Source: Bacillota bacterium (GTDB lineage: Bacteria; Bacillota; DTU065). Taken from it: a DNA stretch of 55,550 bases. The position numbers were made by a program, and so were the translations under genes. Of the stretch, positions 121 through 18,253 are shown piece by piece. The notes under the pieces were generated by a model that saw only the letters and a program-made list of their open reading frames with translations, was not told where the DNA came from and did not search any database. Numbering within the stretch: the stretch's first letter is position 1; the number at the start of each line of letters is the position of its first letter. Where the stretch lies: NCBI GenBank assembly GCA_018435125.1, contig JAHDNZ010000037.1, positions 1 to 55,550 on the forward strand, given 5' to 3'.

Positions 121-204
121 ACTTTGGAAGCGCCGTATACCCAACGGTACGTACGGTGCTGTGGGAGGTCGGCTACTCAAATAATGGGTAGCCTCCTACC
201 CGAT
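1..204 (+). mobile_element. 3' end of a group II intron (domains V and VI)
   Basis: The last part of a group II intron, cut by the window edge. After the maturase stop codon, 129-160 folds as a domain V hairpin that starts with the catalytic AGC triad and closes with GCT. 161-204 folds as domain VI: a GGCTAC/GTAGCC inner stem, a GGGAGG/CCTACCC outer stem and an unpaired A at 198. That is seven nucleotides from the predicted 3' splice site (AT at 203-204), the usual place of the branch-point adenosine. The maturase appears to end without an endonuclease domain, which suggests a class IIC-like intron. The 5' part and the target gene lie outside the window. Confidence 0.8.
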
Positions 205-16120: not shown

Positions 16121-16669
16121 ATGAAAAAATACTATCTCTATGTAGTACTTACAAGAACTAATACCGCTATTTCTAAACTAATTCAATTGGTGCGTAAAGA
16201 CACCTACACCCATGCTGTACTTGCACTGGATAAGAATTTGGAAACAATGTATAGTTTTGGCAGAAAAAGAACCTATAATCCCTTTTTAGGCAGGTTTAGA
16301 AGAGAAAGGCTGAATGAGGGTGTTTACAAATATCACCGCGTATTACCTGGTCTTATTATTGAACTTGAAGTTACCAAAAAGCAATATGAGTCCGTTTTAG
16401 AGCTATTAAACGAATTTATTAAAAACAGTAACAGTTATAAGTATAACTACAAGGGCTTAATTAATAGCATCCTAAAACGAGAGGTATGTTATAGAAACAG
16501 ATTCCTGTGTTCAGAGTTTGTCTATTACCTTTTATATGAAAGTGGAATAGCTGATTTTAATATATCCAGAAATCTAGTTAGCCCCCAAAGCTTACTTAAA
16601 CTAGATGGTAAGGTTATCTTTGAAGGCAACCTCAAAGAACTATTAAACAGGCCCCAAAAAGCTAAATAA
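16121..16669 (+). CDS. Permuted papain-like (NlpC/P60-type, YiiX-like) protein
   Basis: 182-residue soluble protein with the circularly permuted NlpC/P60 layout. A histidine in YTHAVL (residue 31) comes first, and a cysteine in FLCSEFVYYLL (near 129) comes later, the reverse of the classical order. Related YiiX/YebB-like proteins are thought to be hydrolases or amidases acting on lipids or peptides. There is no signal peptide, so it is probably cytoplasmic. AGGAAGGA lies before ATG 16121. Its terminator at the stop codon has been split by the insertion element described below. The family assignment is by motif, and the substrate is unknown. Confidence 0.65.
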   Translation: MKKYYLYVVLTRTNTAISKLIQLVRKDTYTHAVLALDKNLETMYSFGRKRTYNPFLGRFRRERLNEGVYKYHRVLPGLIIELEVTKKQYESVLELLNEFIKNSNSYKYNYKGLINSILKREVCYRNRFLCSEFVYYLLYESGIADFNISRNLVSPQSLLKLDGKVIFEGNLKELLNRPQKAK

Positions 16670-16674
16670 AGATA

Positions 16675-16684
16675 GCTTTTTGGG
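16675..16684. repeat. Left target-site duplication
   Basis: GCTTTTTGGG directly left of the element. The same ten bases occur at 17434-17443 directly right of it. 10-12 bp duplications are typical of the IS4/IS231 group. Confidence 0.9.
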
Positions 16685-17433
16685 CAATGTCATTAAGTTA
16701 AGAACCGAAAAAATTAGAACTCAAAAGACAGAGTATGAGAAATCGTACTCTGTCATCTTTTGATGTTTTTGAAAAATAGGACTTGACAAATAGGGCGAAA
16801 TCTGTGGCGCAGCCCCTTAAATGAAGGCATTTTAAGGAGGTTGTGTCATGGTAAATTATTCACTATTTGTTAAGGAAAAGTTGAAATCTATTATCGCCAA
16901 TATGGCATCCCGAAAGGATGAATTCGTTAAAGACCCAGGCAAGGATTTTACACGTCGTCGAAAACTCTCGTTCGAAGAGACGATTAACTTTATGCTTTCC
17001 ATGGGGGTGGTAGCCTTAATTACGAGCTAATGGAGCATTTCAGTTATGATCCAAAAGTAGCTACTTCTTCTGTATTTATTCAGCAAAGAGACAAACTGCA
17101 TATTCGATTGGTAGACACTTCTTCAAAACCCTTGTTAATGCACATCCACCCGATATTGAAGCTCTTATACAAAAGTATATTTTACCGATAAGACAGGGTC
17201 GCACACACCCTGGAAAAATTAGATTCGGAACTTTTGGAAGCTTCAACTATAGAATAGCTTAGAATCCGAGATAAAACAAAAGTTTTTTTGACAGATAATT
17301 TATCTGTCTATTTGTCATGCCCCAAAATAGTAACTTCCAAGCTTCTAAAGAAAAAAAAGAGTCGTCAAAGACGTATTTATATTACGTTGACAACTCTTTA
17401 TAAATATCTCGTTACACTAACTTAATGACATTG
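16685..17433 (+). mobile_element. Internally deleted IS4/IS231-type element (749 bp)
   Basis: The ends are perfect 16-bp inverted repeats: CAATGTCATTAAGTTA at 16685-16700 and its complement at 17418-17433. GCTTTTTGGG flanks both sides. Inside are hairpins next to each end: CAAAAG/GACAGAGTA with complement at about 16722-16763, and AAAGAGT...ACTCTTT at about 17358-17402. A transposase gene that has lost its centre lies between them. Subterminal hairpins of this kind keep outside transcripts from entering the element. A full element of this group is roughly 1.4-1.7 kb. The copy cannot make its own transposase but keeps intact ends, so it might move if a complete relative provides the enzyme. 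Confidence 0.88.
16848..17262 (+). pseudogene. IS4-family transposase, frameshifted and with the middle deleted
   Basis: ATG 16848 follows AAGGAGGTTGTGTC. The first 54 codons read as an IS4-type N-terminus (LSFEETINFMLSMG). One G is missing in the run at about 17002-17006, which shifts the frame and stops it at 17030. In the shifted frame the normal sequence continues (GGSLNYELMEHFSYD, VFIQQRDKL) to about 17105. The catalytic DDE centre is then missing. The C-terminal end reappears near 17140 in the third frame (EALIQKYILPIRQGR... FGSFNYRIA) and stops at TAG 17260-17262. The protein is certainly inactive. Confidence 0.88.
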
Positions 17434-17443
17434 GCTTTTTGGG
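17434..17443. repeat. Right target-site duplication
   Basis: GCTTTTTGGG, identical to 16675-16684. It completes the evidence for transposition of the element into the terminator. Confidence 0.9.
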
Positions 17444-17452
17444 GCCTTATTT

Positions 17453-18097
17453 TTAACGGCAATATTTGAAGATAAAGATAAAGTGACTTAAACTACCAAG
17501 AATCACAAAAATATGGAAGATCTCGTGAAAACCTAGCCAGTCCTTTATAAAGTTGGGTTTTTTACGAGCATATACTAAAGCACCTAGACTATAAAGTATA
17601 CCACCTGAGATTAACCACCGAATAGCTTCTAATGAGGAAGCCTCCAAAAGTGGAGAAAAGGCGAAAATAACCAGCCATCCCATGACAATATAAATTAAAG
17701 TATAGACAAAACGAGGTACCTTAATAAGTAAAGTTTGCAAAAAAATACCCAGAATTGCCAAAGCCCAGATCAAAGCAAGCAACACATAACCGGTTTTGCC
17801 TTTTAAAAGGGTGAGACAAATTGGGGTGTAAGTACCGGCTATTAGAACATAGATCATGCTGTGATCGAGTCTTCTGAGCCTTGCAATTTTTTCCTTCGGA
17901 CCATTACTAATATGGTAAATAGCACTGGTAGTATATAGAAGAATAAGACTAATGCCAAAGACACTAAAGGATATTATTTGCCAAATATTACCTTCAGGAA
18001 TTACCTTAACAAGCATTACAACAAAACCTACAATAGCTAATATTGCACCGATTAAATGACTTAAACCACTGCCGGGATCTCTAAAATTACTAACCAT
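17453..18097 (-). CDS. Hemolysin III family (PAQR-like) membrane protein
   Basis: 214 residues with seven hydrophobic segments. It carries the family's metal-site motifs: GAILAIVG after the first histidine (GLSHLIGA), SAIYHIS, DHSMIYVLIAGTYTP, and HEIFHIFVILGSLSHF near the C-terminus. This matches the COG1272/YqfA-YplQ group. The biochemical role in bacteria is unsettled and proposals involve membrane lipids. The start at 18097 has GAGGGGGG 4-6 bases upstream. An in-frame ATG eight codons earlier (18121) has no such site. A strong promoter with palindromic operator-like sequences lies about 180 bases upstream. Confidence 0.88.
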   Translation of the reverse strand: MVSNFRDPGSGLSHLIGAILAIVGFVVMLVKVIPEGNIWQIISFSVFGISLILLYTTSAIYHISNGPKEKIARLRRLDHSMIYVLIAGTYTPICLTLLKGKTGYVLLALIWALAILGIFLQTLLIKVPRFVYTLIYIVMGWLVIFAFSPLLEASSLEAIRWLISGGILYSLGALVYARKKPNFIKDWLGFHEIFHIFVILGSLSHFIFIFKYCR

Positions 18098-18253
18098 GGT
18101 ACCCCCCTCTTTTTTATACAAGTAAACAAGACAAACAACCTAAACTCTTAGGTAGTTGTCTGAAAAATGTAACGTATACGTAGATAAATCGTGCATCGTA
18201 ATTATGGACTTTCTAGAACATAGGCTTAAATAATGTATATTAAAATTAAAGCG

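What the first reader, a model, noticed from the sequence alone, without database searches (positions are those of the whole stretch)
16650..17452. Deleted IS231-type element inserted precisely into a transcription terminator
The element (16685-17433) has perfect 16-bp ends and a 10-bp duplication GCTTTTTGGG. Removing it and one duplication copy rebuilds a perfect 16-bp terminator stem followed by TATTTTT between two convergent genes. The target is thus the 3' arm of a hairpin. The copy keeps intact ends but lacks the transposase centre, so it is a natural non-autonomous, MITE-like form. Both flanking genes lose part of their shared terminator, although the element brings its own subterminal hairpins.
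Basis: seen in the sequence. Interest (0 to 1): 0.62.

Follow-up and report, generated by a model that had tools for sequence, protein, structure and literature searches.

The report
Jumping DNA that lands in terminators
The 749-base insert is a decayed copy of a jumping gene whose relatives across many Firmicutes land, within a base or two, at the centre of the hairpins that stop transcription, whatever their sequence; this suggests that the jumping enzyme recognises a DNA shape rather than a DNA sequence.

Summary
The element (16685-17433) has perfect 16-bp ends and a 10-bp duplication, GCTTTTTGGG. Removing it rebuilds a 16-bp terminator stem between convergent genes. 'IS231-type' is wrong: ends, transposase and relatives place it in the IS1675 group of the IS4 family. 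It is an internally deleted single copy, not an amplified MITE. The genome holds one full-length copy with a broken transposase gene, also inside a terminator, and one 539-bp remnant.

The larger result is clade-wide. I collected 79 distinct insertion sites of relatives (Clostridia, Paenibacillus, Lactococcus, Enterococcus) that kept their duplications. A hairpin centred within 2.5 bp of the duplication rebuilds in 66%, against 1.7% for nearby non-coding positions (p about 2e-61). Most are A-tract/stem/T-tract terminators. The half-sites are complementary but share almost no sequence. The elements usually carry their own terminators just inside their ends. One predicted empty site exists, 100% identical, in a public plasmid.

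The known precedent is ISRm22 (IS4 family), at the axis of REP palindromes. Use of sequence-diverse terminators by a whole IS clade was not found in the papers searched. The window copy itself is atypical: 11 bp off the hairpin axis. Recognition of the folded structure is inferred, not shown.

The parts
16685..17433 (+). Internally deleted IS4-family (IS1675-group) insertion sequence, 749 bp
   Evidence: Perfect 16-bp ends, 10-bp duplication, 96-98% identity to the 1647-bp copy at C88:51415-53061
16685..16700 (+). Left terminal inverted repeat CAATGTCATTAAGTTA
   Evidence: the same end is found in IS1675 and in relatives
17418..17433 (-). Right terminal inverted repeat CAATGTCATTAAGTTA (read on the - strand)
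16675..16684 (.). Left copy of the 10-bp target duplication GCTTTTTGGG
   Evidence: 10 bp is the commonest duplication in the clade, 63 of 81 sites
17434..17443 (.). Right copy of the target duplication GCTTTTTGGG
16649..16664 (+). 5-prime arm of the interrupted terminator (AGGCCCCAAAAAGCTA); overlaps the last codons of the upstream gene
16673..16684 (+). Part of the 3-prime arm left of the element; still forms a 12-bp stem with 16653-16664
   Evidence: I4; -18.8 kcal/mol
17434..17454 (+). Displaced 3-prime arm (GCTTTTTGGGGCCT) and T-rich tail (TATTTTT) of the interrupted terminator
   Evidence: (I1)
16848..17030 (+). Remnant of the transposase N-terminus, frameshifted relative to the C88 copy
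   Evidence: Matches residues 1-55 of the query, then another frame; alignment
17077..17259 (+). Remnant of the transposase C-terminus (residues 379-439); the internal deletion junction is near 17102
16727..16754 (+). Left subterminal hairpin followed by a T-rich stretch: candidate replacement terminator for the left gene
   Evidence: -24.4 kcal/mol, z -5.3
17356..17399 (-). Right subterminal hairpin followed by U8 on the - strand: candidate replacement terminator for the right (HlyIII) gene
   Evidence: -19.0 kcal/mol, z -3.4
16121..16669 (+). Left neighbour, 182 aa, unassigned; homologues in family members at 57-71%
17453..18121 (-). Right neighbour, HlyIII-family membrane protein
   Evidence: PF03006, 1.3e-49

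Best explanation
The feature is a decayed IS4-family insertion sequence of the IS1675 group. Shown from sequence: this clade inserts preferentially into intrinsic-terminator hairpins, usually with the 10-bp staggered duplication centred within 1-2 bp of the hairpin axis (3 stem pairs + 4-nt loop + 3 stem pairs). The half-sites need to be complementary but need not have a particular sequence, and flanking A- and T-tracts add to the preference. Inferred: the transposase, a DDE enzyme, captures the folded target (an extruded cruciform or a single-strand hairpin at a supercoiled, transcribed intergenic dyad) rather than a base sequence. Inferred: this is a low-cost niche, because genes are spared and the subterminal terminators that most of these elements carry take over termination for the neighbours. 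In the window copy the transposase centre was deleted; with no intact transposase gene found in the genome it is probably a fossil.
For: Observation. Family: NF033592 IS4 transposase 167.7 bits over a cutoff of 115, PF01609; D, D, E and Y(2)R(3)E(6)K are invariant in the alignment. The second own-genome copy lies at the centre of AAAAAAAGGCCGGATTAAATCCGGCCTTTTTTTT. 79 distinct sites with duplications: 73% have a strong hairpin against 3.4% of control positions, and in 52 of 58 the axis lies within 2.5 bp of the duplication centre, 44 at 0. Against non-coding positions 30-220 bp away: 65.8% against 1.7%, p 2e-61; 63.5% after collapsing similar targets. Pairing at +/-3 to +/-12 is 48-73% against 27-41% when half-sites are permuted among sites, while single-column information there stays at or below 0.41 bit. 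Matched for A/T arms, 77% of sites against 11% of controls have the hairpin; with poor arms, 64% (of 11 sites) against 0.3%. Inward-facing subterminal terminators: left 70%, right 61%, shuffled 10-13%. The reconstructed empty site of an E. faecalis copy is present uninterrupted, 205/205 identical, in LR962126.1.
Against: The window copy is off-axis by 11 bp, and about a third of sites lack a centred hairpin above threshold. Elements of the deepest branch of the clade (L191, L195, L197, L198) give no above-threshold centred hairpin, although L195 has one just below it. The Lactococcus/Enterococcus branch also shares a core sequence (GGGTATACCC-like), so sequence plays a part there. No experiment shows that the transposase binds hairpins, and A/T arms are enriched as well. 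The third own-genome copy has neither a duplication nor a rebuilt terminator. No empty-site relative was found for the window locus itself, because synteny is lost in the family members checked.
Confidence: 0.8

Rival explanations
1. The transposase reads B-form sequence or bendability: a GC-rich core flanked by an A-tract on the left and a T-tract on the right, as recalled for IS231A. Terminators are hit because they happen to have that layout.
For: A at -13/-14 and T at +13/+14 carry 0.6-0.8 bit, more than any core column; 89% of sites have an A- or T-run of 4 or more on at least one side; some sites have arms but no clear hairpin.
Against: Controls with equally good arms have a centred hairpin in 11%, against 77% of sites; sites with poor arms still have the hairpin in 64% (n=11) against 0.3% of controls. 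Six hairpin targets have no tract at all.
Confidence: 0.25
2. Survivorship: the element inserts widely, but only copies in gaps between genes persist, and terminators are common there.
For: Terminators are intergenic; 24 of 64 classifiable sites lie between convergent genes and 7 between divergent ones.
Against: Nearby non-coding positions have a centred hairpin in 1.7% against 65.8%. Survival cannot explain an axis position exact to 1-2 bp.
Confidence: 0.05
3. The window case alone is a chance hit of a non-specific IS.
For: It is off-axis, unlike most relatives.
Against: The duplication and the rebuilt 16-bp stem are exact, and a second copy in the same genome sits at a terminator axis.
Confidence: 0.1
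4. The 749-bp form is a working MITE or mobile insertion cassette moved in trans.
For: Intact ends and a perfect duplication.
Against: Single copy; no intact transposase gene found in the genome; the other deleted copy has a different deletion.
Confidence: 0.1

Closest known systems
IS1675 (Lactococcus; IS4 family)
   Same: Identical 18-bp ends CAATGTCATTAAGTTAAG, 10-bp duplication, about 1.6 kb, transposase 43-44% identical; its copies lie at palindrome axes
   Different: Intact and mobile-looking; its targets share a GGGTATACCC-like core and are not always T-tailed terminators
ISRm22 (Sinorhizobium; IS4 family), inserted in REP elements (PMC1525189)
   Same: IS4 family; insertion at the palindromy axis of an extragenic palindrome
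   Different: 6-bp duplication; the target is one conserved repeat family, not sequence-diverse terminators
IS231 subgroup and mobile insertion cassettes (PMC2266710)
   Same: IS4 family, duplications of 10-12 bp, transposase-less derivatives known
   Different: Ends begin CAT, not CAAT; reported mostly from the Bacillus cereus group
Group IIC introns (recalled: insert after intrinsic terminators)
   Same: A mobile element that uses terminator stem-loops of varied sequence as target
   Different: Retroelement that inserts after the stem, not at the axis; RNA-based recognition
E. coli IS4
   Same: The subgroup's name-giving element, with -AAT ends and a duplication of more than 10 bp
   Different: Transposase 19% identical; the one K-12 site examined shows no hairpin

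Membership tests
IS4 family | Y(2)R(3)E(6)K motif and D(60-110)D(100-150)E triad | tested here: met
   D123, D200, Y322, R325, E329 and K336 (IS1675 numbering) are invariant in A2, which includes the C88 copy; the window copy has lost the region
IS4 family | Curated transposase profile | tested here: met
   NF033592 167.7 bits against a cutoff of 115 for the read-through C88 protein
IS4 family | Target duplication of about one helix turn | tested here: met
   10 bp here; 9-11 bp in 80 of 81 sites
IS4 subgroup IS4 | Ends -AATR--------WTW----, 1400-1650 bp, 10-13 bp duplication | tested here: met
   CAATGTCATTAAGTTA fits; the C88 copy is 1647 bp (PMC2266710 Table 1). No tree with all subgroups was made
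IS4 subgroup IS231 | Ends CAT-------AA--TAA--- | tested here: not met
   Third base is A, not T (PMC2266710 Table 1)
IS1675 group | Clade with IS1675 and the same ends | tested here: met
   Same ends; the C88 protein nests among the relatives, apart from E. coli IS4 and ISPa1635
MITE / mobile insertion cassette | Several copies of the same transposase-less form, moved in trans | tested here: not met
   One copy of this form in the genome

The most novel reading that the evidence does not exclude
A DDE transposase clade selects targets by DNA secondary structure: it integrates symmetrically at the axis of extruded terminator hairpins or cruciforms regardless of sequence, while carrying terminators at both ends that restore what it breaks.
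Probability: 0.45. Interest if true: 0.8.

Novelty: new variant of a known kind. Interest (0 to 1): 0.62.

Why it matters
It turns one deleted IS into evidence for a clade-wide target rule: insertion at the axis of sequence-diverse terminators. If the transposase reads a folded structure, its insertions would mark where hairpins or cruciforms form in living cells, and an IS would be shown to use a safe site at the ends of genes. The claim can be tested with IS1675 in a laboratory Lactococcus strain.

Tried and rejected
A first scan of genome contigs with the broken own-genome protein found nothing; an alignment with IS1675 and other relatives succeeded. Near-matches to the ends at C29, C22 and C71 are single ends without a partner, and the surrounding sequence does not look like the element: chance. 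Empty-site search for the window locus in family members: not syntenic. The reconstructed empty site of another E. faecalis locus (L042) was not found whole in plasmids. The IS231 and MITE labels were considered and rejected. Paper searches for IS insertion into terminators gave no prior report for this group; subscription papers and ISfinder itself could not be searched.

Full report
Observation. The element at 16685-17433 has perfect 16-bp inverted ends and a 10-bp duplication GCTTTTTGGG. Removing it and one duplication copy rebuilds a perfect 16-bp stem with an 8-nt loop followed by TATTTTT, -28.2 kcal/mol, z -6.0. It lies between a 182-codon gene on the + strand and a HlyIII-family gene on the - strand.

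What it is. The own genome (2.55 Mb, 91 contigs) has two more copies. C88:51415-53061 is full length (1647 bp), but its transposase gene carries a stop codon and frameshifts. C74:62546-63084 is a 539-bp remnant with a different deletion and no duplication. No intact transposase gene of this kind was found in the genome. The read-through C88 protein is IS4 family, and the catalytic and YREK residues are invariant in its alignment with relatives. The ends fit subgroup IS4 and not IS231 (PMC2266710). The nearest named element is IS1675 of Lactococcus, which has identical ends and a 10-bp duplication. The 749-bp form occurs once, so calling it a MITE is not justified.

Clade-wide targeting. Relatives were gathered from genome contigs, viral contigs, plasmids and whole genomes. 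Pairs of ends with a duplication give 81 sites; dropping one with a 7-bp repeat and one inside a tandem IS1675 array leaves 79. Typical empty sites are AAAAAGCCGAGAAAATCTCGGCTTTTTT (L047) and AAAAAATCACTAAAGCAATTGCTTTAGTGATTTTTT (L058). A strong hairpin is present in 73% against 3.4% of control positions, and in 52 of 58 its axis lies within 2.5 bp of the duplication centre, 44 at zero. Non-coding positions 30-220 bp away score 1.7% against 65.8% (Fisher p 2e-61), and 63.5% remains after similar targets are collapsed to 63. In a plasmid collection the predicted empty site of one E. faecalis copy exists uninterrupted and identical over 205 bases, so the reconstruction is sound there.

Sequence or structure. 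With the axis fixed at the duplication centre, positions 3-12 on either side are complementary in 48-73% of sites, against 27-41% when right halves are dealt out anew among sites, while each column holds at most 0.41 bit in that range. Positions 1-2, the loop, do not exceed chance, as expected of hairpins rather than protein operators. A- and T-tracts at about 13-15 bp carry the only strong sequence signal. They do not explain the dyad: controls with equally good arms have a centred hairpin in 11% against 77% of sites, and sites with poor arms still have it in 64% (n=11) against 0.3%. Survival in gaps between genes cannot produce base-exact centring. I therefore infer recognition of a folded target, with terminators favoured among hairpins; binding itself is not shown.

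Consequence for the neighbours. Most of 80 distinct elements carry a terminator-like hairpin just inside an end, facing inward: left 70%, right 61%, both 39%, shuffled 10-13% per end. Outward-facing ones are also frequent (54%, 74%), so many are bidirectional. In the window copy these are 16727-16754 (+) and 17356-17399 (-), -24.4 and -19.0 kcal/mol. Both neighbours therefore probably keep a terminator; this is untested. Sites lie between convergent genes in 24, tandem in 33 and divergent in 7 of 64 classifiable cases (rough ORF-based calls).

Limits. The window copy itself is 11 bp off-axis, a minority pattern. The deepest branch shows no above-threshold centred hairpin in four sites. The Lactococcus/Enterococcus branch adds a core sequence. 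E. coli IS4 and Pseudomonas ISPa1635 showed no evident hairpin at one site each (read by eye), so the breadth of the trait outside the clade is unknown. About 35 paired ends lack duplications; some join what look like halves of different terminators, as recombination between copies would produce.

Comparison. ISRm22, also IS4 family, inserts at the axis of REP palindromes (PMC1525189), so axis insertion is known for a conserved repeat. Paper searches found no report of an IS clade using sequence-diverse intrinsic terminators; subscription literature was not searchable. Verdict: new variant of a known kind.

Noticed in passing
window 128-204: Group II intron 3-prime domain (RF00029, 44 bits) at the very start of the contig; the intron is cut off by the contig end.
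   Followed up: no
L235 (NZ_PP589667.1 40667-44270) and L241: Tandem IS1675 copies separated by one GGGTATACCC target copy in Lactococcus plasmids.
   Followed up: no
L194, L205, L207, L208: One Lachnospiraceae element family targets repeated near-perfect palindromes (GGGGACGTAGTA..TACTACGTCCCC and GGGGACGGGGTT..AACCCCGTCCCC) that look like interspersed repeats rather than terminators.
   Followed up: partly
L072, L075 and other copies without duplication: Left and right flanks look like halves of two different terminators, suggesting recombination between IS copies.
   Followed up: partly
G000:C74:62546-63084 (L011): Third own-genome copy, 539 bp, no duplication; its right flank (GAGCGGTATTTTT) could be half of a terminator.
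   Followed up: partly
G000:C88:51415-53061 (L010 516-2162): The only full-length copy in the genome has a stop codon and frameshifts in the transposase gene, so the family looks extinct in this draft genome.
   Followed up: yes
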